A DNA stretch of 64,000 nt from positions 186,001-250,000 of the forward strand of contig JAGYWI010000003.1 of the NCBI GenBank assembly GCA_018606805.1, read 5' to 3'. Of the stretch, positions 9,630 to 39,860 are shown piece after piece. The notes beneath the pieces were generated by a model, which ran no database searches, had not been told where the DNA came from, and saw only the letters and a program-made list of their open reading frames with translations. The first letter of the stretch is position 1. Every line of letters begins with the position of its first letter. Origin of the DNA: Candidatus Magnetomicrobium cryptolimnococcus. GTDB lineage: Bacteria; Nitrospirota; Thermodesulfovibrionia; Thermodesulfovibrionales; Magnetobacteriaceae. Position numbers and translations under genes: made by a program.

Positions 9630-10778
9630 ATGATTAAACTTATACATATATCAGACCTACATTTAGGGAAGCCCTTTAAGGCTTTTTATGATAAAGGGGA
9701 GGTTTTACGCCAAGCACTTATTGACGTGTTTAATCGTATAGTTGATTTTGCTATCCAAGAAGATGTTAAGGGTGTACTTATTGCTGGAGACCTATTCGAT
9801 TCAAATAGTGTTGGAAAGACTATAAACATCATACAAGGTATAATAAAAAAGAGTGGGCTAAACTTTTACATATTACCCGGTGCTGGTCAAGGTGGTGTCG
9901 CTGGACATGATGCCCTTGTGCAAGGGTCTTTATACCTGCGGGAAAGTTGGCAGATGGTGCCAAATGCACACATTTTTAAAGCTACTGACGGGGAGGTATT
10001 TTATGACTCCGATTATAAAATTGCTTTTTATGGTAAGCCAACCATTACTTATAACCAATCACCGCTTCCTATTTTGGATAAACATAGGGAAGCTCTTTAT
10101 CATATAGCCCTTGTACATGGCAGCATTCAGTTACATGAACACATTGATGACTACCCATTTACGCTTGAGGAGGTGGCTGCCCTTGACTATCAGTATGTAG
10201 CCCTTGGGCACTGGCATAGGTTCAATAAATACGAGTATGGGGGGGGCATGGCGTGTTATTGTGGGGTAGCGGAGATACTTGAAAAAGGTGGAGAGGGTAG
10301 GGGCACGTTTGCTTTAATTTGTCTTAAAGAGGGGAAGGTACTCTCTGTTGAGTGTAAGCCGATTGGTAGATTTTTTAATATGAAAATCCCTATCAATGTG
10401 GAACAGGATTTGGCGGATTTAAGCCACTTTATCCAAGAAAATGTTTATGAACCTCAAAACACTATTTTAAATATTTATCTTAGTGGAGATATTGAAATCA
10501 ATCAATATGAATATTTTAAAGAGGCACTACTGGATAAGCTAAAGGAGGTTTTTCATGTTTTTCTTGATGACAAGGACGTGCGATTTAACTCAAAGGCTGT
10601 CTCATATCCGGCAAACACGGTAGCTGGCCAATTCATTAGACTTATGGAAGAAAAACTATCGCTTGAGCCTGATGAGGACAAGAGGCAGCACATGTTTAGG
10701 GCTATGCAGATAGGGATTGGGCTTTTAGCTGGTGAGAAGGATAAGAAGGATTTATCTTTAAAGGAGTATCTTTTTTGA
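9630..10778 (+). CDS. YhaO/SbcD-like metallophosphoesterase
   Basis: 382 residues, calcineurin-like phosphoesterase fold, predicted nuclease subunit partnering the ATPase encoded next. Visible metal motifs: SDLHLGK near the N-terminus, IAGDLFDS, ALVHGS and VALGHWHRF. The canonical GNH(D/E) segment is changed to LPGAGQGGVAGHDAL, with an apparent insertion and no Asn before the His-Asp. The last four bases overlap the next start (TTGA), so the pair is translationally coupled as in sbcDC and yhaON. Role: DNA end processing or repair by analogy; activity is uncertain because of the altered motif. Confidence 0.85.
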   Translation: MIKLIHISDLHLGKPFKAFYDKGEVLRQALIDVFNRIVDFAIQEDVKGVLIAGDLFDSNSVGKTINIIQGIIKKSGLNFYILPGAGQGGVAGHDALVQGSLYLRESWQMVPNAHIFKATDGEVFYDSDYKIAFYGKPTITYNQSPLPILDKHREALYHIALVHGSIQLHEHIDDYPFTLEEVAALDYQYVALGHWHRFNKYEYGGGMACYCGVAEILEKGGEGRGTFALICLKEGKVLSVECKPIGRFFNMKIPINVEQDLADLSHFIQENVYEPQNTILNIYLSGDIEINQYEYFKEALLDKLKEVFHVFLDDKDVRFNSKAVSYPANTVAGQFIRLMEEKLSLEPDEDKRQHMFRAMQIGIGLLAGEKDKKDLSLKEYLF

Positions 10779-13165
10779 AAATCAAGTCCATTTCTACTAT
10801 TAATTTTAGAAACTTAAAAAACACTCAATATGATTTTGTAAGCAATGGTCTTACCTGTGTTTTTGGACCAAATGAAGCCGGTAAAAGCTCCATCCTTGAG
10901 GCTATAGAAGAGGTGTTTTTTACAAAGGTTGAAAAGGCAGTTAATCCTAATTTTCAGACATGGGATGGTGAGCGCCCTGTTATTAAGCTGACAATTGAGC
11001 TTGAGCAAGCCAATAACGTTATGCAAGATGTCATAGTAGAGCGCAATTTTCAAGATAATAAATCCTACATACGTGGCGCAACGATTGACTTAAAAAATGA
11101 AAAACAGATAAAAGGCTTCATTGGGGAGTTGTTTGGTTTTTTTGATATAGATACCTTTAGAACACTCTTGACGGTTAAACAAAAGGAGCTCTCAAGTCTT
11201 AAAAAGACCACAATAGAGCGGGAAGTTGAGGCATTGGTTACAGCTTCAAGGCAAGGTATGTCCGTCTATGAATTAATACGCTTTATTGATGATATACTTA
11301 CTGTAAAAAGAACTGCATTTAAAGGTCAAGACGGGGCTTTTTACAATAATATTATCTCTGACATTCAAAAACTAAAGGACAAAAAAACTGAGCTTACAAT
11401 AAGGCTTGAAGCCTTTTCAAATAAAGCTAATCAACTCTTAACACTTAAAAAAGACATTGAAACTTCTGTAAAACAAATATCACTATTAGATACTCAAACT
11501 AAATGGCTTCAAATATATATAAAGGTACGAAAATTAAATGACAAATTAAAACAATTATCAAAAATCAATGCTAAAATAGAGTACCTTAGCTCTGAACTGG
11601 AGATATTGGAAAATGAGCAAAGGCATCAAGGGGAAAAACTAAAAAATTATATTGCACTTAAAGAAATAAATACCTCTATTTTATTGAACAAAAAAGACAT
11701 TGACTCTTACGAAAAGACAAATAAACGCTTAAGTGAGATTAAAGATAGAATAGCTGCAATAGACGTAGAGTTGACTGATAAAATTATTCCAAAACTTGCT
11801 GAAATTGATACATTAAAGACACTTATAGCAAGATACAACGAACTAAACGATACACTAAAATCCCAAGCCCTTAACGTGGAAGTTGAGGCTTTTAAGGAAA
11901 TTGAAATTAACACAACAGAAAAAAATATCTTCTTAAAACCATCCAAAAAGGCAAGCCTATTGTTTATAGGGCACAAAAACTCCTTTTTAGTGCCAGGCAT
12001 ATTAAACGTATCACTTAATAATATAGGTCTTACAAACATATCGCTTTCTGCTGAAACTTGCGAAAAAGAAATAGAAGAATTTGGCAAAAAATTTACAACC
12101 AAAAACCCACAACATCTGGAACACTATTATACCTTACATATGGAAAAGGTCAGACTTAAAGTGGATGAAGATAAGCTCCTTAGTAGCATAACACAGAAGG
12201 AGTTTAAAGAACGGCTTGATGAAAAAATCAAAGAACACCACTTGCTACAATTAAAGGCAGAGGAACTCCTACTGAAACTTGGCAATATAAAGGAGTTTGA
12301 AATAGAAGAAGCAATCTATGAAATGAAAAAAGTAGAACTTGAAAATAAAAAAGGACAACTCGCTCAGTTTAGATACGAAAAGGCAAGCCTAATAGGCCAA
12401 ACAACTGAGGAAAACATTGAAAAAGAAAAGGTACAAATAGAACACGAACTATCAAGGTTTGACATTGATAATGATTTCGTGCGCACTTGCTTACCACTAC
12501 AAATTAATGAACTAAAAGAAAACTTGAAAAACCTATTAGATACGTTATCAAGAGAAAAACAAAACCGTCAACGCTTCGACGTTGAAGCCGCACGACTTGG
12601 TGCAGAACTTGCTAACGTACCATCATATGAAGAGCTTTCAGTAGTGTCAGAAGAATTAGAAGCCCTCGAAGTTAAAAAGAATAAGGCAGATGATTACCTA
12701 AAAAGCCTCATCATACTTGAAGAAACTTTAAAAGAAGCTGCCAAAAAGACTGTAAGTATTATTAATGAAAAAATAGATAACTGTACATCTAAATACTTTA
12801 ATATGATAACATTAAATAAATACGAAAATGTCAAGGTATCTTTTGATTCAAAAGATTCAATTAAACTCTTAGTAAAAGAATTTACCAAAGATAAGTACCG
12901 AGAAGTCCTAACAAATATAAAAACCCTAAGCTCAGGCGCTACTGAGCAACTATACTTTTCCCTGAGAATAGCACTAATAGAGATTCTTTGCGGTAAGAAG
13001 AATCTACCTTTTTTACTGGATGACCCCTTCGTTGACTATGATAATAAGCGACTACAAGAAACCGCCGCATTAATTAAAAATCTTGGTATTCAATGTATAC
13101 TGTTTACATGTCATGAAAATATAGTAAACTCTTTTAAAGATTTTGCAAAGGTTATTAATTTATGA
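10775..13165 (+). CDS. YhaN/SbcC-like SMC-type ATPase
   Basis: 796 residues. The N-terminus has Walker A FGPNEAGKSS; the C-terminus has the signature LSSGATEQLYFSLR and Walker B PFLLDDPF, the split ATPase layout of Rad50/SbcC proteins. The middle is long coiled coil broken near residues 370-440 by a less helical segment (FLKPSKKASLLF..). No CxxC zinc hook is visible, and length is closer to YhaN than to SbcC. It starts with TTG at 10775, with AAGGAG upstream inside the phosphoesterase gene. The pair probably processes DNA ends. Confidence 0.85.
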   Translation: MKIKSISTINFRNLKNTQYDFVSNGLTCVFGPNEAGKSSILEAIEEVFFTKVEKAVNPNFQTWDGERPVIKLTIELEQANNVMQDVIVERNFQDNKSYIRGATIDLKNEKQIKGFIGELFGFFDIDTFRTLLTVKQKELSSLKKTTIEREVEALVTASRQGMSVYELIRFIDDILTVKRTAFKGQDGAFYNNIISDIQKLKDKKTELTIRLEAFSNKANQLLTLKKDIETSVKQISLLDTQTKWLQIYIKVRKLNDKLKQLSKINAKIEYLSSELEILENEQRHQGEKLKNYIALKEINTSILLNKKDIDSYEKTNKRLSEIKDRIAAIDVELTDKIIPKLAEIDTLKTLIARYNELNDTLKSQALNVEVEAFKEIEINTTEKNIFLKPSKKASLLFIGHKNSFLVPGILNVSLNNIGLTNISLSAETCEKEIEEFGKKFTTKNPQHLEHYYTLHMEKVRLKVDEDKLLSSITQKEFKERLDEKIKEHHLLQLKAEELLLKLGNIKEFEIEEAIYEMKKVELENKKGQLAQFRYEKASLIGQTTEENIEKEKVQIEHELSRFDIDNDFVRTCLPLQINELKENLKNLLDTLSREKQNRQRFDVEAARLGAELANVPSYEELSVVSEELEALEVKKNKADDYLKSLIILEETLKEAAKKTVSIINEKIDNCTSKYFNMITLNKYENVKVSFDSKDSIKLLVKEFTKDKYREVLTNIKTLSSGATEQLYFSLRIALIEILCGKKNLPFLLDDPFVDYDNKRLQETAALIKNLGIQCILFTCHENIVNSFKDFAKVINL

Positions 13166-14445: not shown

Positions 14446-14564
14446 ACATACCTCCAACAATCTATTTGTAGCGGTTCATATCATAATTCAATATTTTAAC
14501 ATACAACAGACATAGCCAAGTAAAAAAACTTGAACATCAAATATATAATATGGTAATAGTTCAC

Positions 14565-14640
14565 CTCACGTTGTCATTGCGAGCGTAGCGAAGGTGTGGA
14601 GGCGCACCTTTTTTAAAAGGGTTTTCCCCCGCCATCTTTT
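14565..14640. repeat. mosaic of the GTCATTGCGAG element and family A hairpin
   Basis: GTTGTCATTGCGAGCGTAGCG (in part shared with 14935-15037) runs into GTGGAGGCGCACC and AAAAGGGTTTTCCCCCGCC, the right half of the family A hairpin. It looks like two repeat types spliced together. Confidence 0.6.
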
Positions 14641-14736: not shown

Positions 14737-14889
14737 TCAAAATGAGAATTGCTGGCACAATAATGCTTCTATTGCTATTTTTGCTTTAAGCCCTGCCGTT
14801 AAGCTTTCTCTCATTATATATGTATTTATTTCCTTATTTTTCTTTTCTATTCTTTGCCTCCTATAACTTAACATATTGTCTAAATTCAT
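14737..14889 (-). pseudogene. IS3-family transposase OrfA remnant
   Basis: The minus strand reads MLSYRRQRIEKKNKEINTY then MRESLTAGLKAKIAIEAL before diverging and stopping. The segment AGLKAKIAIEAL matches the start of IS3-type OrfA (usually FKAKVALEAL). The helix-turn-helix that should follow is lost. The element's terminal repeat lies just upstream at 14856-14900. Confidence 0.55.
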
Positions 14890-14900
14890 GGGGCCATTAT
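14856..14900 (-). repeat. 45-bp IS terminal repeat, left copy
   Basis: On the + strand it reads GCCTCCTATAACTTAACATA through GGGGCCATTAT. A second copy at 19016-19060 matches at 42 of 45 positions in the same orientation. Together they flank the cyclase-radical SAM-HD operon. Confidence 0.75.
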
Positions 14901-14934
14901 CTAACACTTTCAGAGGCATTTATTTTAAGCCTAT

Positions 14935-15037
14935 TTGTCATTGCGAGGAGTTAACGACGAAGCAATCTCGTTTTTTTACAGAAAAGAGATTGCAGGGATG
15001 TGTGCCTACACACCTTTCGCTACGCTTGCAATGACAA
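14935..15037. repeat. 103-bp element with TTGTCATTGCGAG ends
   Basis: TTGTCATTGCGAG at the left and CTTGCAATGACAA at the right are inverted copies with one mismatch; AGCAATCTC and GAGATTGC form an inner stem. Short elements with these ends are widespread in bacterial intergenic DNA. Confidence 0.75.
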
Positions 15038-15197
15038 ATTAAGGGCAAAATTATTACCAAATTGATTAAAATTCTGCTTAGACAATATTGACGCCAAACG
15101 ATATTAGTCTATTATATTCTTATTTTAAAATTTTTTGTTTTTTATATTCAATCTGTTTTTGTCAACTAAAAAAATTGATCATTGAGTATAAAAATAA

Positions 15198-17810
15198 CTA
15201 TTCTTCCACCATACCCTCCCTATCCCACCACTGATACTTATAGTTTAATTTATCATTTAATAATGATTTTAATCCTTCTATTTTTGTGTAGCTTAATACA
15301 TCCTCTCTATAGGTATTCTCATATTCGTTTAATGTTGTATTCAAAAAATTCAATACAAAGTTATGCTTATCTATTGCAATAGTTTTACTTACCTGCAAAT
15401 TTAATAAACCATAAAGATGAATAAGTTTTTCAAAAAAATGGTTTATGGCTGAAGTATATCCCGGATTGTCATTTAATTGCAAACGAGTTCTAGGACGTTC
15501 ATCAATGTTAAATAATCCTCTATTCTTTTTAAAAGCAAAACATCTACAGATACCTATAGCTCCAATTGCATCTATTTTATCAGCATCTTCGAGTATATCA
15601 CATATTAAATTTTCGGCATTGTCAAAACCTCTTCGCCTTATATTTTTATTAGGTTCTTTTATATAATCATCAAAAGAGGCCGTAGATACTATTTTGACAA
15701 CTTTCTCTATAATATCTCCTTTAACATTTTCTGTAATTAAAAAGTCTACAAGTCTTTTGTTTCTACAATCTTTATTATTATTTACAATAATAGTATTTGG
15801 GATAGTACACTCGCCTAAATCATGTAATAAACACACTAAATTAAGTATTGTTTTATTATTATCATCTAAATTATATTTTTCGCTTATATCCTTAGCTATA
15901 TTTAAAACCCTCTTAAAATGACCTAAATTATGAGTAATATCCAATAGATTAATATTATGATGTTGCAACCTTAAAATAATCCTATTTATTAAATTGTCCT
16001 TACTCTGTGGTGTATTATAAAGACAATGTATATTGGCACACGTAGTGACACCATTACAAAGAATATAATGAATACTATTATCTTTATTCCCAACATTTGT
16101 ATAAGATGTAGTTTCACAAAGATATGCAACTGCACAAGGGCTAGAACGAAATATTTTTATATATTCGGATTTTTTTTCAATCTCATTTACAAATGCTTCC
16201 AATGGTTCTGAATAATCAAAGGCATATAGATTTTTAAAATAACCTGGATATGATAACGGCAAAGTATTCTCTCTTTGTGCAGAAAAATTATAGCAATCTA
16301 AACTTGTAGGATAAGAAGTTAGAATATTTTTGATATAAAATTCTGCCATTTCATTAATTTTTTCTTTTGAGAAATAAGCATAACCTATAATGACTATAGG
16401 AAATTTACACAAAAAATCTTTCAAATCTTGCTCTTTGTCCGTAATTCCAGGTAAAAATGGTTTTACATATGGTATTATATTGCATTTAAAGTCCACTATT
16501 AATGAAGAGTTCAGTAAAGTTATCAGTTCTTCGTTAAATGTTTTATTTTCTCCACTGAATCGTCTTTTTTCAAGCTTGTCTGAGTACTTTACTGTACTTA
16601 AAGAATATAAAATAAATAGTCTTTTAGTAATAATATCCTTATTACATGTTGTAGATATATCATTAAACAATTTTTCTATTTTATATACAGGTTCTTTTGT
16701 TGCAATTTGTATAACATTATTTGTGTGTTTAATTAAAAACAGTAATATTTCTAAGGTAGTATTATAATTATTGTCATCAATGGACTCATTCATCTGACTT
16801 ACTGAAAATAAATAACCATCTATTTGATTTTCCAACGAAAATATTCTAAATTCTTGAATAAATTCTCTTATCTCAAACTTAAAATAGAAAAACGATTCTT
16901 TTCCTGAAAGACAATATTTACAATTTATAGAACATGGTTGTCCATACTTAATAAATATTCTTTTTTCATTTTTATTTTTAGATAGATAAAAGTATTTGTA
17001 TTTAAATACTGTAGTTACTTCTGGGCTTGCCATAACAATATATTTTTCATCATTTTTTACCTGTATTTCAAACTTTTCAAATGCTATATATTGTTTTAAC
17101 ATCATTTCATCTATATAACCATCACTAAGCTCTACAATTATTCCGGTTGGTTTAGCATTATCACACATTCTAGATGATTTGTTGGCAGCATCACCTAAGA
17201 AATAATCATACTTATCCTTATCTATTGATTTCAAAAATAGTAAACTGCCGCTACTAATTCCAACACCTATACGCAATTTATCCTCATCAGTCAATTTGAA
17301 TTTATCGTTATAATGCCTATCAATCTCATCAAATACATAATATATTTTTCTTATAATACTAAGTATGAATTTAATATATTGTGTTTTTTTCTCTATCATT
17401 GACATATTCTGAGTTGTTTTAATTATTTTAATAAATATATATCCATCTCCAGTAAAAGTAAGATCATCAAAATCATTAGAAAAAAATTTTGTTAACTGTC
17501 TTATTAAAAAATTCTGATGTTTAATTGCTAATCTACTATCCCGCTGAGTTGTTATTGTAAATTGTCTTATATCAAAACATACAGCTATACCCTCTCTTTC
17601 ACGTACAGAAATATATCCCTTATTTAATGTATCATTTACTTTTTTAAATTTAATCTTTACTTTGTCAAATATATCTTTAATACGCTCTTTAAACTTAAGA
17701 ATTTGCTCCTGTCTATTGCCATTTTCTATTCCATAGAAATAATTCAAAATTGAAAAAACATCTTTTTCAACAGAATATAGTGTTTCTGATGAATTTATAA
17801 GGTTATCCAT
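15198..17810 (-). CDS. class III nucleotide cyclase - radical SAM - HD phosphohydrolase fusion
   Basis: 870 residues, soluble, very AT-rich codons. Domain 1 (about 70-260) is a class III cyclase: metal Asp80 in CFDIRQFT, Asp122 in TGDGY, GVGISSG at 182-188, and Asn210 and Arg214 in GDAANKSSRM. The base-selecting position just before LGD is Tyr207-less in the usual sense (it reads DYFLGD), so the nucleotide cannot be predicted. Domain 2 (about 280-560) has Cys293-x3-Cys297-x2-Cys300, the radical-SAM 4Fe-4S motif. A Cys-rich stretch follows (559, 565, 584, 591, 596). Domain 3 (about 635-800) is an HD hydrolase: HNLGHFKRV, His663-Asp664 in LLHDLGE, and Asp744 in DADKIDAIGAIG. Its start overlaps the TPR gene by 16 bases. 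I know no described system with this fusion; a signalling or defence role is inference. Confidence 0.8.
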   Translation of the reverse strand: MDNLINSSETLYSVEKDVFSILNYFYGIENGNRQEQILKFKERIKDIFDKVKIKFKKVNDTLNKGYISVREREGIAVCFDIRQFTITTQRDSRLAIKHQNFLIRQLTKFFSNDFDDLTFTGDGYIFIKIIKTTQNMSMIEKKTQYIKFILSIIRKIYYVFDEIDRHYNDKFKLTDEDKLRIGVGISSGSLLFLKSIDKDKYDYFLGDAANKSSRMCDNAKPTGIIVELSDGYIDEMMLKQYIAFEKFEIQVKNDEKYIVMASPEVTTVFKYKYFYLSKNKNEKRIFIKYGQPCSINCKYCLSGKESFFYFKFEIREFIQEFRIFSLENQIDGYLFSVSQMNESIDDNNYNTTLEILLFLIKHTNNVIQIATKEPVYKIEKLFNDISTTCNKDIITKRLFILYSLSTVKYSDKLEKRRFSGENKTFNEELITLLNSSLIVDFKCNIIPYVKPFLPGITDKEQDLKDFLCKFPIVIIGYAYFSKEKINEMAEFYIKNILTSYPTSLDCYNFSAQRENTLPLSYPGYFKNLYAFDYSEPLEAFVNEIEKKSEYIKIFRSSPCAVAYLCETTSYTNVGNKDNSIHYILCNGVTTCANIHCLYNTPQSKDNLINRIILRLQHHNINLLDITHNLGHFKRVLNIAKDISEKYNLDDNNKTILNLVCLLHDLGECTIPNTIIVNNNKDCRNKRLVDFLITENVKGDIIEKVVKIVSTASFDDYIKEPNKNIRRRGFDNAENLICDILEDADKIDAIGAIGICRCFAFKKNRGLFNIDERPRTRLQLNDNPGYTSAINHFFEKLIHLYGLLNLQVSKTIAIDKHNFVLNFLNTTLNEYENTYREDVLSYTKIEGLKSLLNDKLNYKYQWWDREGMVEE

Positions 17811-18778
17811 TCATCATCTATATCATCATCTATATTAAGCACAAAATCTTGTAAATCTCTAATTAATTTAATTAAAAACATATTTAAATCAGTTTTAAAA
17901 TTACCATATTTTAGTAACATATCCTCACATTGTTCTAAACTCTTTGTGAGAGTATTATCGTCAATTTTTTGAGTAGCTAAACACATCTCTACAAGAATTT
18001 TTTTTATATAAACTAAATAATATTTGTTCGTCGCATCACCTAATTTATCAATACATTTATTAAACTCAATACGTGCATTTATGTAATCACTCAATAAATA
18101 ATATATATATCCTTTACTGTAATTAATATAATATGAAGAATGACATGCTTCAGCTTTATCTAAAAATTTGAAAATTTCTTCCTTATGTTCTAATAGTGTT
18201 TTTGAGTATGTTCTCCTAAGTACAGTTGCATAATGTTTACATACAAAATATTGTAAACTAGTAGTTTTATTATTTAAAAGTAAAACATTATCTCTACTAT
18301 CTGAATCAATATCTGAATAAATCTCAAGCAAAAGTTCCTTAGAAATTTCACATAATCCAATATTTTGCAAAGCTACAGCCTTCCAATTTTTTACGAGTAG
18401 CTTAAAAAAAACATCTGGACATTCACATTGCGTATCTTTTAATATATTCTCAAATATATTTATACTTTTATAAAATTCACCCATTTCCATTAGTAACCTT
18501 GCAAGTTCATATTGGATATAAAGTTTTTCTTTTTCAGGAAAACCGTTTTTCACTATATTTTCTAAAACCTGCTGTGTTACAATAGGTTCCGATGATAAGA
18601 GATTGTCAAGGCTCTTCTTATTCGTTTCATTCGATGGACTTAAATATTTTGAAATAATAAATCTACGTATCACCATCACTTCGCTTTCTGTATTAGCAGT
18701 CTCAAATGGAATGCACGATAGATACTGTATAATTCCATCCTTAAAATCTCTATCAAAAATATTTATAATACAAAACAT
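17795..18778 (-). CDS. TPR-like helical repeat protein, operon partner of the cyclase fusion
   Basis: 327 residues with a strong ribosome site (GGGGAGG, five bases before ATG). It is all-helical with TPR-like pairs, for example LYIQYELARLLMEMGEFYKS and a later YSKGYIYYLLSDYINARIEF. No catalytic motif, signal peptide or membrane helix is visible, so it is more likely a sensor, scaffold or regulator than an enzyme. The acidic tail (DDDIDDEW) overlaps the start of the cyclase-radical SAM-HD gene by 16 bases, so the two are translationally coupled and probably work as a pair. Base composition matches the partner and is more AT-rich than surrounding genes. Confidence 0.75.
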   Translation of the reverse strand: MFCIINIFDRDFKDGIIQYLSCIPFETANTESEVMVIRRFIISKYLSPSNETNKKSLDNLLSSEPIVTQQVLENIVKNGFPEKEKLYIQYELARLLMEMGEFYKSINIFENILKDTQCECPDVFFKLLVKNWKAVALQNIGLCEISKELLLEIYSDIDSDSRDNVLLLNNKTTSLQYFVCKHYATVLRRTYSKTLLEHKEEIFKFLDKAEACHSSYYINYSKGYIYYLLSDYINARIEFNKCIDKLGDATNKYYLVYIKKILVEMCLATQKIDDNTLTKSLEQCEDMLLKYGNFKTDLNMFLIKLIRDLQDFVLNIDDDIDDEWITL

Positions 18779-18999: not shown

Positions 19000-19015
19000 C
19001 GGTTCTATATTACTT

Positions 19016-19060
19016 GCCTCCTGTAACTTAACATACTGTCTAAATTTATGGGGCCATTAT
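19016..19060 (-). repeat. 45-bp IS terminal repeat, right copy
   Basis: Same orientation as 14856-14900 with three substitutions. No transposase sequence is attached here, so it is a solo end or deletion scar. Confidence 0.75.
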
Positions 19061-30072: not shown

Positions 30073-30324
30073 AAGTATATACCTCAATCTATAGATGTTT
30101 AAAAATTGCCAGATAATTAAGCTTAAAACCACCCCACGTTGTTGTAATATACCATCTCTAAGTTAATCTATAATGACACTATTATTAAATCTTTTTATAA
30201 TAGCCCAATAAATTTATACAATGTGTTAAATTATAGATAGTAATTGCAATTTAGTATGAAATTATGTATTATTAATTATCTTTATATATGAGAAAGTAAT
30301 GCTGTTTTGTATGTGAGGGAGATA

Positions 30325-31641
30325 ATGAACGTAGATGATATAACTGACCTTATACTTTTAATAGGAACAAATCCACTGCCTAACTACGTAGTAGCTAAGT
30401 GGTTTTTAATTAATCCCAACTGTAGTATAAAGCGTATATGGTTGGTTTATTCTGATGCAAATAAGTTGCAAGCTGGCACAAAGGATATAGCGAAGCGATT
30501 ATCTAAGATTTTAAATGAAGAGTTCATAAATGTTAAAATAAAGTATTGTCCTTTAAGTAATATTAGCAGGAATGATTCTATAGATAATGATATAAAAAAA
30601 CATATAGTAAAAGAATTGAAAAATTATAATGATAAAAATAAATTACACTTAAACTATACTGGCGGTACAAAAACGATGTCAGTGCATGCTTATTCATATT
30701 TAAGGGATGCCTGTAAAGATAATATTTCTTTTTCCTACCTTGATGCAAGATGTTTCAAAATTATTGGTGATAGCTACTGTGATATATTTGATGATAATGA
30801 TTTAAGAAATACTATTAAGATTGATATTGATAAATTATTAAAACTTCATGGCTATGAGCGTAAACCTAATGAAGAAAACTGCGAAAGGTGGAACAACGCA
30901 CTTGATGAGTTTGAAAACATAATATCTACTGATAAAATAAACGAATACCTATCATGGTGTGATGAGTTTATAAGCGTTGTATATTATAACAGAAAAGGTG
31001 AGTTTATAAAGGAAAAGAAAAAGTTCATTGAGCACATTAACGCTAATAATATTAACGCTATTATTGATAGTTTTAACGAGAGTAAATGTGAAACAATAAG
31101 AGAATTACTACAAGAACTCCCAAAAGAGCATTCAATTCTTAATGAAGATGGTTCGTTATGGATACCGGATAATGAACTTAACAACTCTTTATTTAAGGAA
31201 CGACTGAAACCTGTTGAATTTTTACATGGTAAGTGGCTAGAATGTTATGTACAGAGGATAATATTAGGTAATGAAGAACTAAAGGAATACACAATAATTA
31301 AACCATTAAAGTTTAAAACAAGTAAAGATAAAGATGTTGATATAGATATTGCAATACTATGTGGTTACCAACTGATAGGTATATCAATCACAACAGATAC
31401 AAAAGATGGTACTAATAAACTTAAGGCATTTGAAGTGCTACACAGGGTAAATCAGATAGGTGGTGAGGAAGCTAGGGCTATGTTAATTTCTTGCTTACCT
31501 GGTGACCGAATTGAAATTTTTGAAAAAGATATAAAAACCATTACAGGTTCGAATAAAGAGAAATTCAAGGCAATAGGCGTTAATAAATTGCGAAAAGATT
31601 TCCTGATACAAGAAATAAAGGATTTTGTGTGTCAAAGATAA
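30325..31641 (+). CDS. CARF-domain Card1/Can2-like (DUF1887) effector with variant nuclease motif
   Basis: 438 residues from ATG 30325 (GAGGGAG just upstream; an earlier TTG at 30307 overlaps that site). The N-terminal CARF domain has LILLIGTNPLPNYVVAKWF and LNYTGGTKTMSVHAY, the ligand-binding signature of this family; it should sense cyclic oligoadenylate made by Cas10. The C-terminal half resembles a PD-(D/E)xK nuclease: Glu306 in HGKWLE and Asp337/339/341 in DVDID, but the expected E-x-K is Ser354-Ile-Thr356 (GISITT), then KLKAFEVLHRVNQIGGEEAR. First gene of the CRISPR run, overlapping cas10 by 13 bases. Card1 degrades single-stranded nucleic acids; whether this copy cleaves is uncertain. 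Confidence 0.85.
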   Translation: MNVDDITDLILLIGTNPLPNYVVAKWFLINPNCSIKRIWLVYSDANKLQAGTKDIAKRLSKILNEEFINVKIKYCPLSNISRNDSIDNDIKKHIVKELKNYNDKNKLHLNYTGGTKTMSVHAYSYLRDACKDNISFSYLDARCFKIIGDSYCDIFDDNDLRNTIKIDIDKLLKLHGYERKPNEENCERWNNALDEFENIISTDKINEYLSWCDEFISVVYYNRKGEFIKEKKKFIEHINANNINAIIDSFNESKCETIRELLQELPKEHSILNEDGSLWIPDNELNNSLFKERLKPVEFLHGKWLECYVQRIILGNEELKEYTIIKPLKFKTSKDKDVDIDIAILCGYQLIGISITTDTKDGTNKLKAFEVLHRVNQIGGEEARAMLISCLPGDRIEIFEKDIKTITGSNKEKFKAIGVNKLRKDFLIQEIKDFVCQR

Positions 31642-33113
31642 CTGCTATCTTTATTGATACTATTTCAATACAACGGTATGTGTTTGAAAGTAATAAGCTT
31701 ATCGAAAACGTTGGGGCATCTTATATAGTACAGAGCATTTACGGCCCTCTGCTTAGAGAGTCTTTTAATACATTATATAAAACTCAGGATGTTGAGCATA
31801 TTGTTAATAAGTGGAAAGAGCCAAATAACGATAAAGCTATACATGATGGAGATGAATTTGGCATAGGATATATTGGAGGTGGAAATGCTTTATTGTTTTT
31901 TAGGCAAGAGGATAAGGCAAAAGGGTTTGTAAAAAATTGGACTAAGCTCTTGTTATGCAAAGCCCCCGGTGTACAAACAGCAATAGCAAAAGGACTTTTT
32001 GAAGAAAATACCTTTAAAGACTCTTATAAAGCTCTTCATGAAGGGTTAAAAGTTAATAAAAATAAATTTCACCCAATAACATTACCATATAAATTTGGAA
32101 TTACAGCAGATTGCCCACTTTCTGGTCATTCCTCAGAAGTATATTATGAATCAAATGAAGAGAAGAAGTATATTTCCTCTTACTCTTTTGCAAAAATCAA
32201 TAGCAAAGATGAAGCTAATAAATATTTAAAGGATTTATGTAAAGATGAGATAGGGGAAAAATACGATTTTACTATGAATATAAATCAGCTTGGTCAAACA
32301 GAAGGAGAGGATAATTATATTGCCATAGTTCATATTGACGGTAATAAAATGGGGCAAAAATTTAAAGATTGTGAGTCGTTATTAAAACTAAGACAACTAT
32401 CTATAAATACATTATCAGCTACAGAAAATGCCTTTAAAAATCTTGTAAAGCATATTATAGACCTCATAAATGGTGTTTTTAAAGATGTTCTTGTGTTAAA
32501 ACAATCGGAGAATAATAAAACATTTCTACCTTTACGGCCAATAATAATTGGCGGTGATGATATAACATTTGTTTGTGATGGTAGATTAGGGGTTTATTTT
32601 GCTGAAAAATATATTGAGATTTTAAAATCTGAAGAACATGGATATAATGCCTGTGCTGGAATATGTATAGTTAAAACAAAACATCCCTTCTATAGGGCTT
32701 ATAAATTAGCAGAAGAGCTTTGTAGAAACTCAAAAAAGCAATCAAGGGATAATAACGATGTCTCTTGTCTCGATTTTTATATAACCTCAGGAGACATAAC
32801 AGGTTCACTTGAGGATATACGAAAGAAACAAAGTCTTTTTACTTATAATAGTACAGATAATGAATTAACTAACGGTCCATATATTTTAGGGAGCGAATCT
32901 ATTGTCAACTTAAAGGCTGGGATAAAGAATTTACAGCAAAACTATTCTGCCACTAAAATTATGGAACTGCGTAATGCCATTATAAGCGGAAAAGAAAAAA
33001 CATATATAGTTGTTGAATATATTAAACCTAAATTAGAAAAAATTGACGGGGACTATAAACCATATTTTGATATGATAGAGTTAAAGGATTTCTATCCAGA
33101 GGTGTTATTATAA
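31629..33113 (+). CDS. cas10: Cas10-like large subunit, compact, no HD domain
   Basis: 494 residues from GTG 31629 (AAGGA upstream inside the CARF gene). It begins directly with the first palm (IDTISIQRYVFESNKLIENVGASY), so the HD nuclease of typical Cas10 is absent. A GGGNALLFF turn is followed by the second palm with VHIDGNKMGQKF and Gly308-Gly-Asp-Asp311 in IIIGGDDITF, the cyclase motif that makes cyclic oligoadenylates, then a C-terminal helical domain. A CARF effector next door fits signalling rather than DNA cleavage. Length is short against the usual 700-900 residues. Confidence 0.85.
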   Translation: MSKITAIFIDTISIQRYVFESNKLIENVGASYIVQSIYGPLLRESFNTLYKTQDVEHIVNKWKEPNNDKAIHDGDEFGIGYIGGGNALLFFRQEDKAKGFVKNWTKLLLCKAPGVQTAIAKGLFEENTFKDSYKALHEGLKVNKNKFHPITLPYKFGITADCPLSGHSSEVYYESNEEKKYISSYSFAKINSKDEANKYLKDLCKDEIGEKYDFTMNINQLGQTEGEDNYIAIVHIDGNKMGQKFKDCESLLKLRQLSINTLSATENAFKNLVKHIIDLINGVFKDVLVLKQSENNKTFLPLRPIIIGGDDITFVCDGRLGVYFAEKYIEILKSEEHGYNACAGICIVKTKHPFYRAYKLAEELCRNSKKQSRDNNDVSCLDFYITSGDITGSLEDIRKKQSLFTYNSTDNELTNGPYILGSESIVNLKAGIKNLQQNYSATKIMELRNAIISGKEKTYIVVEYIKPKLEKIDGDYKPYFDMIELKDFYPEVLL

Positions 33114-33115
33114 CA

Positions 33116-33763
33116 ATGTATAGATTAACCATAGAACCCTTATCGTATGTGTTAATTGGTTCTGGTTATGGGTATGGTGCGCTCATAGATTCAGATGTTG
33201 TATTTGATGGCTATGGCATCCCTTACTTACCTGCCAAAAGAATTAAAGGGCTTTTAAGAGAAAGTGCTATTGAAATTTGTGAAATGACACTTGACTTTGA
33301 TGAAAAGAATATACTTTCTCTATTTGGCGATTCAACAAATAGTGGATTAATAAAAATATCTAATTTTTTTATAACTGATTATCCGCAGATAATGCAATGG
33401 TTGAGATGGGCTTTTAACGGTGAAAAAAGTAATATTAAAAAACTTGTAAACCAACAGTCTGTTTTGAACACATTTACAGAATTAAGACAATCTACTGCAA
33501 TAGAAGAAGATAAAGGTGTGGCCAAAGAAGGTTCTTTAAGAACTGTAAGAGTTCTAAAACCCAATGAGGCTCTTAAATTTCATGGAACAATAGAAAAGCT
33601 TAATGATAATAAAGACGAAACACTATTAACCTATGCCTGTTTGAATCTTAAACGAATGGGAACTAAACGTAATAGAGGTTTTGGTAGAATTGCTTGTACT
33701 TTATGGCAAGATTCTAATAATTTAACCGCTGAGATTATAAAACAACCTAATGAAAGAGATTAA
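33116..33763 (+). CDS. single-domain RAMP protein (Csm3/Cas7-like), type III
   Basis: 215 residues. One RAMP fold: GSGYGYGALIDSDVVFDGYGIPYLPAKRIKG (read in parts) with acidic residues where Cas7 proteins place the RNA-cleaving Asp, and a glycine-rich loop KRNRGFGRIAC near the C-terminus. It follows cas10 by two bases and overlaps csx10 by 14. Probably a backbone subunit of the type III-D-like complex; subunit number cannot be deduced. Confidence 0.8.
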   Translation: MYRLTIEPLSYVLIGSGYGYGALIDSDVVFDGYGIPYLPAKRIKGLLRESAIEICEMTLDFDEKNILSLFGDSTNSGLIKISNFFITDYPQIMQWLRWAFNGEKSNIKKLVNQQSVLNTFTELRQSTAIEEDKGVAKEGSLRTVRVLKPNEALKFHGTIEKLNDNKDETLLTYACLNLKRMGTKRNRGFGRIACTLWQDSNNLTAEIIKQPNERD

Positions 33764-35246
33764 ATTAACAATAGAAACCTTAGCACCAATTGTAATAGCC
33801 AGAAATTTTGGTGATAGAAATCTTATAGAAACGTTAGGATATATTCCAGCATCTTCAATTTTAGGCATTTTTGCATCTGAATATATCAAGCAAAAACCAA
33901 TTGAACACATAGAAAGGGATGAAGCTTTTTATAACTGGTTTCTAAATGGTAAGATTATATTTACAAACGCATATCTATTTTATGAAGGGAAAGAATTTTT
34001 GCCCTGTCCCTTTACCCTTCAAAAAGAAAAAACAGATAATAATACTATTTATAACCTGTTGGAACCATCTGATAGTAAAGATACTACAGCAGTTAATGAA
34101 TTTGTAAATATTTATAATGGTAAAGAAGTAAAAACAAAAATACCAGAAACTATTATAAACTTTCACCATGCAAGAGACAGCCGAATAGGTGGAAAAAGCA
34201 CAGAAGGTAAGATATTCTATTATGAAGCAATTAAAGAGGGACAACTTTTTTGCTCCTATATTATAGGAGAGGAAGAACAAATTGATAAGTTCAAAAAAAC
34301 CTTTCTATCACCATTAAAAGCAAATATAGGGCGTTCACGTAACATTCAATATGGATATATTAGAATAGAAATTGATGATAAAGTAAGTAATTATGATGAT
34401 TTAGAAATTGAAAATGAATTTACTATAACATTTACATCGCCTGCGCTCTTTTATAATAAATATGGATACCCTGAGCCTTCTATTGAGACTTTAACTATGT
34501 ACCTTGAAAACATTTTAAACATAAGCAAAGGTGAGATAAGCATCAAAAAAACCTTTTCAAAGATAGATAGATTTGAAAATTTTATAAGTGTATGGAAATT
34601 AAAAACTCCTTTAGAAATAGCATTTGCTGAGGGTTCAACATTTCGCATAGAAATTAAAAGTAATTCATTTAATGATAATGTACAACAAAATATAAAAAGT
34701 GCCCTTATGACTGGAATTGGTGAAAGAACTTATCAAGGATTTGGCAGATTTACACTAAATATGTTAACAGAAAACGAATATACTCTTTCAGTTTATGAAG
34801 AAAAAACAGTAGACAAACCTACTGAATGTCCAGCAGTAATAACAAAAATACTGACAGAAATACTTAAAAAAAATCTTTTAGAATCAGCACAAAAGTTAGC
34901 ACAAGAATTTAAACTTGAAAATAAACCGTCTAATTCCCTACTTGGTAGACTTGAGCTTATGCTTAGGCAATCTGAAAACATAAAGGATTTTAAAAATAAA
35001 ATTAATCCATTAAAAGCAAAGGAAGATTTAGAAAATTGCACATTCAATAACAAACCACTAAATGTAATGTTAGAAGATGATAATTACCCTAATTCCTTTA
35101 AGCAAATAAAGGACACACCGTATTTTAATGAATTATCCACTTTAGCTAAGGAGTGCAGCTTAGAAATAAAAGATGCTTTTAAAGAAGAAGTTTATAAAAC
35201 TTACTGGTTAAATGCCCTAAGAGCAATGAGAAAGGAGGGCGACTAA
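33750..35246 (+). CDS. csx10: Csx10-like RAMP protein, type III-D
   Basis: 498 residues with two RAMP glycine loops (GRSRNIQYGYIRIEI and GERTYQGFGRF). The N-terminus LTIETLAPIVIARNFGDRNLIETLGYIPASSILGIFA (in parts) matches the usual Csx10 opening, a type III-D marker that functions as a Cas5-like or 5'-handle subunit. The C-terminal 150 residues are helical. It overlaps the preceding gene and is one base before the next; the run is clearly an operon. Confidence 0.8.
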   Translation: MKEIKLTIETLAPIVIARNFGDRNLIETLGYIPASSILGIFASEYIKQKPIEHIERDEAFYNWFLNGKIIFTNAYLFYEGKEFLPCPFTLQKEKTDNNTIYNLLEPSDSKDTTAVNEFVNIYNGKEVKTKIPETIINFHHARDSRIGGKSTEGKIFYYEAIKEGQLFCSYIIGEEEQIDKFKKTFLSPLKANIGRSRNIQYGYIRIEIDDKVSNYDDLEIENEFTITFTSPALFYNKYGYPEPSIETLTMYLENILNISKGEISIKKTFSKIDRFENFISVWKLKTPLEIAFAEGSTFRIEIKSNSFNDNVQQNIKSALMTGIGERTYQGFGRFTLNMLTENEYTLSVYEEKTVDKPTECPAVITKILTEILKKNLLESAQKLAQEFKLENKPSNSLLGRLELMLRQSENIKDFKNKINPLKAKEDLENCTFNNKPLNVMLEDDNYPNSFKQIKDTPYFNELSTLAKECSLEIKDAFKEEVYKTYWLNALRAMRKEGD

Positions 35247-35247
35247 C

Positions 35248-36618
35248 TTGTTATCAAAAGACAACGAACGTCTTACAGGTAAGATTATTGTAAAGGCATT
35301 GATAACAAATACAACACCAATAATCATATCTTCTGGTAAAGATGATGAAGAAAGCGATATATTGCTTGTAAGAAACTGGAAAGGGGACTTTTATATTCCT
35401 GCTACCTCATTTGCTGGTGTACTAAGGCATAATATGCGTTTTACATATAACGAAAACCCTGAGCAGTTTGCATATTTTTGGGGAATAGACAATCAAAGTG
35501 CTATGATTATTGATGATCTTATGTCTGAAGAGGAAGTTAAAGTAACCATACGAGATGGCGTTAAAATAGAGAATAAGACAGGTATTGCACTAAAAGGAGC
35601 TTTATATAACTATGAAATAGCCGAATCAGATACTAATTTTAAGCTCTACATTGAAGTAAATCTTAGAAAAGAGTTTGATAAAGACTATTTTTTTAAATGT
35701 CTCTTAACAATGCGTAGTCTAATAGAAAAAGGCAAGATAAATATTGGGGCTATGAGTAACAAGGGATTTGGACGTATTAAACTTACTAACTATAATATTT
35801 ATGAACTTAATTTTTCAAATAAGGAACATTCCATTGCATGGATTACTGATAAGGTAGAAGAAAAGATAGCGCCTACTACAAAACTACCAGAGCCTTTCCA
35901 TATTTCTTCTAACAATACAATGACAATAGATGCCTCGTTTGCTCTAAAAAGTTCCCTTATCATAGGAGCATACTCTGAGGAAACTGACTGTCCTGATAAA
36001 ATTCATATAAAAAGCAATGGGAAATCAGTGCTAACAGGTACTACTCTTAAGGGGGCGATAAGGGCAAGGGCTGAGATGATTATAAACACGCTTGGGGGAA
36101 AGCCTGAGTTAATTCTAAAGGAATTTATGGGTTGGGTCTCAGATAAGTCAGGTAATAATAAAAAGAAGGAAAAATGCTCAAGTAGACTTATTATAGAAGA
36201 GACATATATCGAAAATCCTACAGAGGTAGTGCAACAAAGGACACAAATTAGTCGCTTTACTGCTGGAGTTCTTAATCTTTTTGATTCGCATCCACTATGG
36301 AAAACAAATAACTCCGTAGATATGATTAACATAAAAATAACAATAAAAGACTATAAAGCTTATGAGGCAGGACTTATACTGCTTATTCTTAAAGACCTTT
36401 GGAGTGGAGACCTACCGATTGGTGGTGAAAAGGCAATAGGCAGAGGTGTGCTTGACGGTGTTAAGGCGAAGGTGTCTTTTAATGAAAATACGGTTGTTAT
36501 AATTAACAAGAAAAATAATGGAACTAAACTTTCTATTGAAGGACCAAGTGAAAAACTTGAAGAATTTGTTAAGGCGTTTCACAACCATATTGAAAATATT
36601 GAAAATATTGAAAATTAA
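35248..36618 (+). CDS. fused double-RAMP (Cas7-Cas7) protein
   Basis: 456 residues (TTG start at 35248 after AGGAGG). Two Cas7/Csm3-like domains in tandem: the first with NWKGDFYIPATSFAGVLRH and glycine loop SNKGFGRIKL, the second (about 225-440) with SVLTGTTLKGAIRARAE, ISRFTAGVLNLFD and GGEKAIGRGVLDG. Fused Cas7 repeats are known in type III-D/E complexes. Acidic residues lie in both candidate RNA-cleavage loops (GKDDEESD; EETDCPD). The tail is a short IENIENIEN repeat. It likely forms several backbone positions of the effector. Confidence 0.8.
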   Translation: MLSKDNERLTGKIIVKALITNTTPIIISSGKDDEESDILLVRNWKGDFYIPATSFAGVLRHNMRFTYNENPEQFAYFWGIDNQSAMIIDDLMSEEEVKVTIRDGVKIENKTGIALKGALYNYEIAESDTNFKLYIEVNLRKEFDKDYFFKCLLTMRSLIEKGKINIGAMSNKGFGRIKLTNYNIYELNFSNKEHSIAWITDKVEEKIAPTTKLPEPFHISSNNTMTIDASFALKSSLIIGAYSEETDCPDKIHIKSNGKSVLTGTTLKGAIRARAEMIINTLGGKPELILKEFMGWVSDKSGNNKKKEKCSSRLIIEETYIENPTEVVQQRTQISRFTAGVLNLFDSHPLWKTNNSVDMINIKITIKDYKAYEAGLILLILKDLWSGDLPIGGEKAIGRGVLDGVKAKVSFNENTVVIINKKNNGTKLSIEGPSEKLEEFVKAFHNHIENIENIEN

Positions 36619-36623
36619 GAGGT

Positions 36624-37253
36624 ATGCTAATGTTTGTTAATGGAATGCAACCTAGGTGTTTCAAAACTATAACTGAGTCAGATATTTATAAACTTACCAA
36701 TGAAGATATAAATAACGATGATAAACTTATTACCCTAATAGAAAAATATATAAAAACACCTTCATATTTTGTTGCCTATCTCTTTTCTAAAGTATTGATT
36801 GGCAGATATAATGAAAAAAAGTTTATATCATATGACAACCAACCTAATATATTTCCTAAATATCTAATAAAACTCAGGATATTTAACGAAAATGAAGAAA
36901 TATACTTATGGAGAAAAAGCGAATCTATCTTTGCTTGGCGTTATAAAAAAGATGAGGAAAACCATGAGCAATCTCCATGTGCTGAACAATCTATAATAGA
37001 TGTTAAGCAGATTCTATGGGGTACAAAGGTTGAAGGGTATAAGTGTAATGAAGGCAGTGATTGGGTTTGTCTTAGTGAAGAAAGAGGCATGAAACTGATT
37101 ATTCCATTTAATATAAATAAATTCACAAAATACAATCAAGAAGAAGACAATTCAAAAAACCGCGTAAAGATTCTTACAAGACACTACATCGAATATAACG
37201 AAATTGGACAAGCTGGATATGTAGACGCAAGAATGGTTCAATTCGTCATATAA
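36624..37253 (+). CDS. csx19: Csx19-like (TIGR03984) type III-D protein
   Basis: 209 residues (in-frame ATGs at 36624 and 36630; AGAGGT upstream). Small accessory protein of type III-D loci, recognised by EEIYLWRKSESIFAWRYKKD, the ILWGT segment and the final YIEYNEIGQAGYVDARMV. A small-subunit-like role is possible but not established. Last gene of the rightward CRISPR run; the next RAMP gene converges on it, with 49 bases between the stops. Confidence 0.8.
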   Translation: MLMFVNGMQPRCFKTITESDIYKLTNEDINNDDKLITLIEKYIKTPSYFVAYLFSKVLIGRYNEKKFISYDNQPNIFPKYLIKLRIFNENEEIYLWRKSESIFAWRYKKDEENHEQSPCAEQSIIDVKQILWGTKVEGYKCNEGSDWVCLSEERGMKLIIPFNINKFTKYNQEEDNSKNRVKILTRHYIEYNEIGQAGYVDARMVQFVI

Positions 37254-37302
37254 TGAGAGATGCTGCCGCCTAAGCGTAAGACACAGTTTTAGCGCTTTTT
37301 TT

Positions 37303-39707: not shown

Positions 39708-39725
39708 CTTTGCTATTATTGATGT

Positions 39726-39812
39726 GGAGAGGTGGCCGAGTGGTTTAAGGCGGCGGTCTCGAAAATCGCTGTGGGGGCAACCTCACCGGGGGTTCGAATC
39801 CCCCCTTCTCCG
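39726..39812 (+). tRNA. tRNA-Ser (anticodon CGA)
   Basis: 87 bases with a long variable arm (class II). Acceptor GGAGAGG / CTTCTCC with one G-T pair, anticodon stem GCGGT / ATCGC around loop CTCGAAA (anticodon CGA), variable stem GTGGGGGCAACCTCAC, T arm GGGGG-TTCGAAT-CCCCC, discriminator G. CCA is not encoded. Confidence 0.95.
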
Positions 39813-39860
39813 TTTAGTTTTGGCGTTAGGTGATTTAATCTATTTAAGGAGGACAGCGTC

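What the first reader, a model, noticed from the sequence alone, without database searches (positions are those of the whole stretch)
15198..18778. Candidate new signalling or defence system: TPR protein plus cyclase-radical SAM-HD fusion
One 870-residue protein joins a class III nucleotide cyclase with metal Asp80/Asp122 and Asn210/Arg214 present, a radical-SAM site (Cys293-x3-Cys297-x2-Cys300) and an HD phosphohydrolase (His663-Asp664, Asp744). The upstream TPR gene overlaps it by 16 bases. A synthase, a SAM-radical modifier and a nucleotide hydrolase in one chain suggests that a cyclic nucleotide or nucleotide analogue is made, modified and degraded by the same enzyme. The block is AT-rich and flanked by IS ends, hicBA and DUF29. 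I know of Pycsar (class III cyclase plus effector) and of viperins (radical SAM on nucleotides), but not of this combination.
Basis: partly seen in the sequence, partly recalled or inferred. Interest (0 to 1): 0.85.

Follow-up and report, generated by a model that had tools for sequence, protein, structure and literature searches.

The report
Mobile cyclase–radical-SAM–phosphohydrolase gene cassette
A two-gene mobile cassette in a Nitrospirota bacterium joins a helical-repeat (TPR) protein to an enzyme carrying a nucleotide cyclase, a radical-SAM domain and a nucleotide hydrolase; a distant relative with the same four parts fused differently shows that they act together, in a combination not described before, probably as a defence or stress device that works on nucleotides.

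Summary
The 870-aa protein (15198-17810, minus strand) contains a class III cyclase-fold domain (residues ~60-270), a radical-SAM domain (~275-600; Cx3Cx2C at 293/297/300) and an HD domain (~605-870). The 327-aa TPR gene overlaps it by 16 bp. A second, 37%-identical cassette exists in Nitrospirota MAG JACRHJ010000035.1. There TPR, cyclase and radical SAM are one 968-aa protein and the HD domain is a separate, overlapping gene. This rearrangement shows that the four parts form one unit. All catalytic residues checked are conserved in both copies. Both copies are sharply GC-poor inserts in unrelated sites, and nothing else comparable turned up in several hundred Nitrospirota genomes, plasmids, phages or viral contigs.

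The HD domain belongs to the YpgQ/BH2835/YedJ family, whose one characterised member is a (d)NTP pyrophosphohydrolase, not a cyclic-nucleotide phosphodiesterase. The cyclase has lost the adenine-specifying Lys/Asp pair. The radical-SAM domain is SPL/COG1533-like but not an SPL. My best reading is a horizontally transferred nucleotide-centred conflict system: TPR sensor, non-canonical cyclase, and a radical-SAM/HD pair acting on nucleotides. Defence function is inferred, not shown.

The parts
17795..18778 (-). TPR protein, 327 aa; first gene of the cassette, probable sensor or regulator
   Evidence: ORF; TPR_2/TPR_8 weak by Pfam; profile of both cassettes matches TPR structures (kinesin light chain, TOM71), E 1.8e-5 to 5.7e-4; 35% identical to the N-terminal ~364 residues of the 968-aa protein of L016
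17001..17633 (-). class III nucleotide cyclase-fold domain (residues ~60-270): metal Asp80/Asp122, transition-state Asn210/Arg214
   Evidence: PF00211 E=3e-4; AlphaFold/Foldseek CyaC E=3.2e-7; residues conserved in L016
16011..16988 (-). radical-SAM domain (residues ~275-600): Cx3Cx2C at 293/297/300, Tyr299, Thr371-Lys372, PFLPGITD motif, and a conserved C-terminal four-Cys set 559/585/591/596 (possible auxiliary metal site)
   Evidence: hhalign to SPL/COG1533 probability 90% against shuffles; conserved residues
15201..15998 (-). HD phosphohydrolase domain (residues ~605-870), YpgQ/BH2835/YedJ family; His627, His631, His663-Asp664, Asp744, Arg756, Phe760, His791
   Evidence: PDB matches; residues mapped to YpgQ and conserved in L016
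15198..17810 (-). whole 870-aa cyclase-radical SAM-HD gene
   Evidence: colinear with two genes of L016
14843..14900 (+). left copy of the flanking direct repeat (end of a ~140-bp multicopy IS/MITE-like element)
19003..19060 (+). right, truncated copy of the same repeat, 88% identical, same orientation

Best explanation
A horizontally mobile two-gene nucleotide-processing cassette, most likely an anti-phage or stress-triggered conflict system. The TPR protein (a separate gene here, fused in the relative) senses a trigger and controls the enzyme. The class III cyclase-fold domain then converts a nucleoside triphosphate to a cyclic nucleotide; the substrate is probably not ATP. The radical-SAM and HD domains are the output. 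The radical-SAM domain, SPL/COG1533-like with a probable extra metal site, would modify a nucleotide or nucleic acid. The HD domain, YpgQ-like, would hydrolyse (d)NTPs or trim the modified nucleotide to its monophosphate, as OxsA does beside OxsB. Shown (sequence and profile evidence): the four domains, their conserved catalytic residues, their behaviour as one unit, and their insert-like context. Inferred: enzyme activities, order of action, trigger and defence role.
For: Two cassettes, colinear over 1137 residues at 37% identity (TPR 35, cyclase 37, radical SAM 39, HD 42%), with different gene boundaries: TPR | cyc-rSAM-HD here, TPR-cyc-rSAM | HD in L016. Such alternative fusion and fission is classic evidence of functional association. 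Catalytic residues of all three enzymes are conserved. Mobility: 26% GC against 37% here, and 39-43% GC against about 61% with sharp borders between pbp1A and envC in L016; multicopy repeats flank the window copy; absent from the other sampled Nitrospirota genomes and not found upstream of gspC in nine family relatives, six of which had about 11 kb of upstream sequence to judge. Adenine-specifying Lys/Asp are replaced by Thr118/Asn and Tyr203 in both cassettes but kept in the relatives L003 and L022. The HD domain keeps all YpgQ active-site residues; YpgQ is an Mn-dependent (d)NTP pyrophosphohydrolase (PMC8177086). Radical SAM plus HD on nucleotides has a precedent in OxsB/OxsA (PMC13331322). 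A type III-D CRISPR locus with a CARF nuclease lies about 11 kb away.
Against: Only two examples, so recurrence in defence islands cannot be tested statistically. No cNMP-binding effector, TIR, membrane or nuclease gene is attached, and L016 lies between housekeeping genes. The cyclase-fold domain could be a nucleotide sensor rather than a synthase. The radical-SAM substrate is unknown and the AlphaFold models are weak (pLDDT 51 and 49). No experimental data.
Confidence: 0.42

Rival explanations
1. Nucleotide-analogue factory (viperin- or oxetanocin-like): the radical-SAM domain converts a nucleotide, possibly the cyclase's own product, into a toxic or chain-terminating analogue, and the HD domain removes phosphates. 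The cyclase is a biosynthetic step, not a second-messenger synthase. This is closest to the first reader's idea.
For: OxsB (radical SAM) needs OxsA (HD phosphohydrolase) nearby to make oxetanocin-A from dATP (PMC13331322). Here radical-SAM and HD domains are fused in the window and adjacent in L016. All catalytic sites are intact.
Against: OxsB is cobalamin-dependent and no such domain was seen here. OxsA was not matched by the HD domain. A TPR sensor and a mobile stand-alone context fit regulation better than biosynthesis. No export or self-protection gene.
Confidence: 0.25
2. dNTP-depletion defence: the HD domain is the effector (SAMHD1/dGTPase-like), the cyclase-fold domain is an allosteric nucleotide sensor or activating-signal maker, and the radical-SAM domain repairs or modifies nucleic acid or is regulatory.
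For: The HD family is a (d)NTP pyrophosphohydrolase by YpgQ, with all its active-site residues kept (PMC8177086). Cyclase specificity residues have drifted.
Against: Cyclase metal and Asn/Arg residues are kept, arguing against a pure sensor. No significant match to the anti-phage dGTPase models (E=0.0099; E=0.077).
Confidence: 0.18
3. Peptide or protein modification: the radical-SAM domain with its C-terminal Cys set acts on a peptide or on the TPR protein, and the cyclase and HD domains regulate it through nucleotide levels.
For: Four conserved C-terminal cysteines (559/585/591/596) resemble an auxiliary cluster site of the kind found in peptide-modifying radical-SAM enzymes (inference). A radical-SAM domain that likely modifies a peptide effector was reported in FtsH-ternary conflict systems (PMC7159879).
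Against: No precursor-peptide-like small ORF is conserved beside both cassettes. The radical-SAM core matches SPL/COG1533, as far as tested; SPASM enzymes were not compared.
Confidence: 0.1
4. Non-defensive accessory metabolic or DNA-repair enzyme carried by horizontal transfer.
For: The radical-SAM domain is related to the photoproduct-lyase superfamily; the L016 copy sits among housekeeping genes; SbcC/AAA-type ATPase and metallophosphoesterase-type genes lie beside the window copy.
Against: The SPL hydrogen-donor Cys is not conserved (by inspection); cyclase, HD and TPR domains have no role in photoproduct repair; the neighbouring genes are not shared between the two loci.
Confidence: 0.1

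Closest known systems
Pycsar (PycC class III cyclase plus effector)
   Same: Class III cyclase fold with specificity positions unlike adenylate cyclases; mobile, accessory; weak PycC profile hits
   Different: No separate cNMP-binding TM or TIR effector; cyclase fused to radical-SAM and HD domains; specificity residues match neither described PycC clade compared (Phe/Arg/Gln or Phe/Lys/Phe, PMC11224242)
OxsB/OxsA (oxetanocin-A biosynthesis)
   Same: Radical SAM working together with an HD phosphohydrolase on nucleotides (PMC13331322)
   Different: OxsB is cobalamin-dependent; the HD domain here falls in the YpgQ family; no cyclase or TPR in Oxs; a biosynthetic pathway rather than a stand-alone mobile unit
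Viperins / prokaryotic viperins
   Same: Radical-SAM enzymes acting on nucleotides in antiviral defence (general knowledge)
   Different: No viperin-named model hit; the core resembles SPL/COG1533; no nucleotide kinase partner
Spore photoproduct lyase / COG1533 radical SAM
   Same: Cx3CxYC cluster motif, TK motif and LE..R region; colinear profile match over 176-178 columns
   Different: SPL hydrogen-donor Cys not conserved; extra C-terminal four-Cys region; fused to cyclase and HD
YpgQ / BH2835 / YedJ HD hydrolases
   Same: Same family by sequence; all eight YpgQ active-site residues present
   Different: YpgQ is a free-standing enzyme; here it is fused to, or encoded overlapping with, a cyclase and radical SAM
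Class III cyclase-NUDIX protein of Methylobacterium plasmid pMaq22A_1p (L022)
   Same: Closest plasmid-borne relative of the cyclase domain, also fused to a nucleotide hydrolase
   Different: Keeps the adenine-specifying Lys/Asp; no radical SAM; NUDIX instead of HD

Membership tests
Class III nucleotide cyclase | Cyclase homology-domain fold | tested here: met
   Foldseek of the AlphaFold model: CyaC, Cya2, CyaB at E 3e-7 to 1e-5; PF00211 E=3e-4, below curated cut-off
Class III nucleotide cyclase | Two metal Asp and transition-state Asn/Arg | tested here: met
   D80, D122, N210, R214, all conserved in L016
Class III adenylate cyclase | Adenine-specifying Lys and Asp/Thr pair | tested here: not met
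   Thr118 (Asn in L016) and Tyr203 instead; relatives L003 and L022 keep Lys/Asp
Radical SAM superfamily | Cx3Cx2C cluster motif after beta-1 of a partial TIM barrel, with homology to known members | tested here: met
   C293/C297/C300 conserved; beta/alpha order in the model; hhalign to SPL/COG1533 E 1.4e-6, score 51.5 vs max 20.4 in shuffles; Foldseek alone is weak
Spore photoproduct lyase | Fourth conserved Cys (C141 in B. subtilis) as hydrogen donor (PMC3742179) | tested here: not met
   By inspection no Cys in the corresponding segment of the window protein (SVSQMNES); L016 has one there, so it is not conserved
YpgQ/BH2835/YedJ HD hydrolase | Sequence homology and metal ligands H, HD, D plus R/F/H pocket residues | tested here: met
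   3dto E 1.6e-17, 5dqv E 7.6e-13; residues mapped (PMC8177086)
Pycsar | PycC-family cyclase | tested here: inconclusive
   PADLOC PycC hits only at E 0.003-0.014
Pycsar | Adjacent cyclic-pyrimidine-binding effector (PycTM or PycTIR) | tested here: not met
   No such gene seen in or beside either cassette (ORF lists; PADLOC scan of the cassette proteins)
Viperin | Match to viperin profile | tested here: not met
   No viperin-named model among PADLOC or NCBIfam hits
Viperin | CTP/UTP/GTP to ddhNTP chemistry | not testable with these tools
   Needs enzymology
Oxetanocin OxsA/OxsB | Cobalamin-binding domain on the radical-SAM enzyme | tested here: not met
   No B12-binding domain by Pfam in either protein
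Anti-phage defence system | Protection against phage | not testable with these tools
   Needs phage challenge; only mobility and neighbourhood evidence here

The most novel reading that the evidence does not exclude
A new kind of self-contained nucleotide warfare or signalling machine: one polypeptide or operon senses infection through TPRs, makes an unusual cyclic nucleotide, changes it by radical chemistry into a previously unknown messenger or antimetabolite, and uses its own HD domain to switch it off or finish it.
Probability: 0.2. Interest if true: 0.93.

Novelty: new variant of a known kind. Interest (0 to 1): 0.66.

Why it matters
No system found here or known to me joins a class III cyclase, a radical-SAM enzyme and a nucleotide hydrolase. 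If the radical-SAM domain acts on the cyclase's product or on its NTP substrate, this would reveal a radical-modified cyclic nucleotide messenger or antimetabolite, a new class of immune small molecule. It would also link three separate strands of antiviral nucleotide chemistry: Pycsar, viperin and dNTPases. The second, differently split copy makes it testable by simple genetics and LC-MS.

Tried and rejected
Genome-contig and viral-contig scans with the single protein found nothing because the automatically chosen peptides were poorly conserved; a second genome scan with the two-sequence alignment found only the MAG already found by the genome search; viral scans with the radical-SAM, TPR and L016 queries found nothing. 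Plasmid and phage tblastn gave only HD or cyclase fragments. Direct PDB search with the cyclase-radical-SAM profile gave chance hits (T-cell receptor). AlphaFold on the radical-SAM domain alone was too weak for a fold call (pLDDT 49; Foldseek best E 0.02, with Mmp10, RimO, NifB and LIAS among weak barrel hits), so the profile comparison carries that claim. An empty insertion site could not be shown: in relatives the whole region upstream of gspC differs. Considered and rejected: Pycsar member, viperin, SPL, plain housekeeping cyclase. The AriA/PARIS hit of the neighbouring 796-aa ATPase looks like a generic SbcC-like ATPase match beside a metallophosphoesterase-type gene. Literature searches for the combination returned nothing.
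Full report
OBSERVATION. The window (Nitrospirota: its relatives in the same phylum include the record titled 'Nitrospirae bacterium') contains two overlapping minus-strand ORFs, 327 aa (17795-18778) and 870 aa (15198-17810), sharing 16 bp. The pair is 26% GC in a 37% GC window. It is bracketed by two same-orientation copies of a 58-nt repeat at 14843-14900 and 19003-19060. No gene for a transposase was identified beside the one other copy examined.

DOMAINS. HD: residues ~605-870 match the BH2835/Lin1889/SE1688/YpgQ/YedJ family (PDB 3dto E 1.6e-17, 5dqv E 7.6e-13). Mapping onto YpgQ (5dqv, chain numbering offset by 6) shows His627, His631, His663, Asp664, Asp744, Arg756, Phe760 and His791 at the positions of YpgQ H25, H29, H58, D59, D124, R136, F140 and H158 (residue roles from PMC8177086). 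YpgQ acts on (d)NTPs with Mn2+ and is classed as a diphosphatase (PMC8177086). Cyclase: PF00211 is borderline (E 3e-4), but the AlphaFold model of residues 60-621 gives CyaC, Cya2 and CyaB among the best PDB matches (E from 3.2e-7) even though mean pLDDT is only 51. Radical SAM: no library recognises it. However, a profile of the two cassettes aligns colinearly with SPL/COG1533 proteins taken from relatives through PF20903: probability 88-90%, E 1.4e-6 to 2.8e-6, 176-178 columns from the cysteine motif to strand 6. The score of 51.5 compares with a maximum of 20.4 for 100 column-shuffled profiles. The predicted strand-helix order after the cysteine motif is that of a radical-SAM barrel. TPR: the profile of the 327-aa protein and its relative matches TPR structures.

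THE SECOND CASSETTE. One genome in a draw of 396 Nitrospirota, identified in GTDB contigs as JACRHJ010000035.1, carries the same four domains in the same order. The division is different: TPR, cyclase and radical SAM form one 968-aa protein (L016:8732-11638) and HD is a separate 263-aa protein (L016:11635-12426) whose start overlaps the stop of the first. The two systems align end to end over 1137 residues at 37% identity; by domain 35, 37, 39 and 42%. The split points coincide with domain borders (window residue 602/603 aligns to the stop/start of L016). This natural fusion and fission, at a divergence that leaves every catalytic residue intact, is the strongest evidence that the four parts work as one unit. 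The L016 copy is also a sharply bounded GC-poor block (39-43% against about 61%) between a penicillin-binding-protein gene and an envC-like gene (gene names by reading the translations). No other gene appears to be shared between the two loci.

DISTRIBUTION. Draws of 396 and 395 genomes of the phylum, all 230 held of the class, and 199 relatives gave only these two complete systems; the TPR profile likewise hits only these two. Plasmids, phages and viral contigs gave none. The genome-contig scan of 84,980 species used only two short peptide patterns, so it cannot exclude divergent members.

ACTIVE SITES AND WHAT THEY SUGGEST. Asp80, Asp122, Asn210 and Arg214 are intact, so cyclisation is plausible. 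The adenine-specifying pair (family knowledge) is not: the Lys position (Asp122 minus 4) is Thr118 (Asn in the relative) and the Asp position is Tyr203 (Tyr in both). The relative L003 and the cyclase-NUDIX protein L022 keep Lys and Asp. At the base-recognition positions the cassette has Cys78, Thr118/Asn and Thr120, unlike the Phe/Arg/Gln of the CTP-using EaPycC or the Phe/Lys/Phe of the UTP-using AnPycC (PMC11224242). The substrate is therefore predicted to be not ATP, and the described Pycsar rules do not assign it. The radical-SAM domain has the SPL-type Tyr in CxYC and the TK and LE(K)xR landmarks, but the SPL hydrogen-donor Cys (PMC3742179) is not conserved, so it is not a photoproduct lyase. 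It adds four conserved cysteines at 559/585/591/596, which may bind an auxiliary cluster or zinc (inference).

MECHANISM. Most likely (0.42): a mobile, TPR-regulated nucleotide conflict system in which the cyclase makes a non-canonical cyclic nucleotide and the radical-SAM/HD pair acts on nucleotides as the output. The OxsB/OxsA pair (PMC13331322) shows that radical-SAM and HD phosphohydrolase enzymes do cooperate on nucleotides. In Pycsar a class III cyclase drives anti-phage immunity (PMC11224242). Defence is supported only by context: mobility, rarity, and a type III-D CRISPR locus (Cas10d, Csx10-type Cas5, Csx19, Cas7, and a CARF-PDDEXK nuclease) about 11 kb away at 30.3-39.1 kb. The relative sits among housekeeping genes.

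NOVELTY. Each domain is known; the combination was found in no library and in no paper searched. The membership tests for Pycsar, viperin, SPL and Oxs each fail on at least one feature. I file it as a new variant of nucleotide-centred conflict systems, with about 20% probability that it is a wholly new messenger or antimetabolite system.

Noticed in passing
window 30307-39081: Type III-D CRISPR-Cas effector locus (CARF-PDDEXK Card1-like nuclease, Cas10d, RAMPs including Csx10-like Cas5, Csx19, Cas7_IIId) in a low-GC stretch next to a tRNA-Ser (39725-39813); no CRISPR array was found in 25-45 kb by a repeat search.
   Followed up: partly
L022:5995-7065 (Methylobacterium aquaticum plasmid pMaq22A_1p): Unannotated protein fusing a class III cyclase domain (with adenine-type Lys/Asp) to a NUDIX hydrolase domain: another cyclase plus nucleotide-hydrolase fusion on a mobilizable plasmid.
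   Followed up: partly
window 14740-14900 and 19003-19060; 12 further copies in the genome: About 140-bp multicopy element ending ...AACTTAACATACTGTCTAAATTTATGGGTCCATTAT, MITE-like or an IS remnant; no transposase was seen at the copy examined (L054).
   Followed up: partly
L003:952-2151 (and L004): Free-standing cyclase-like proteins in related Nitrospirota with a C-terminal extension; its last 151 aa match no Pfam family.
   Followed up: no
window 14564-14592, 14933-14947 and 15016-15044: Inverted copies of a GTCATTGCGAG... palindrome-type repeat downstream of the cassette.
   Followed up: no
window 9630-13165: Metallophosphoesterase-like gene followed by a 796-aa SbcC/YhaN-like ATPase that also hits PADLOC AriA (E 7e-18), LmuB and GajA models; probably a generic SbcCD/YhaO-YhaN pair.
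   Followed up: no
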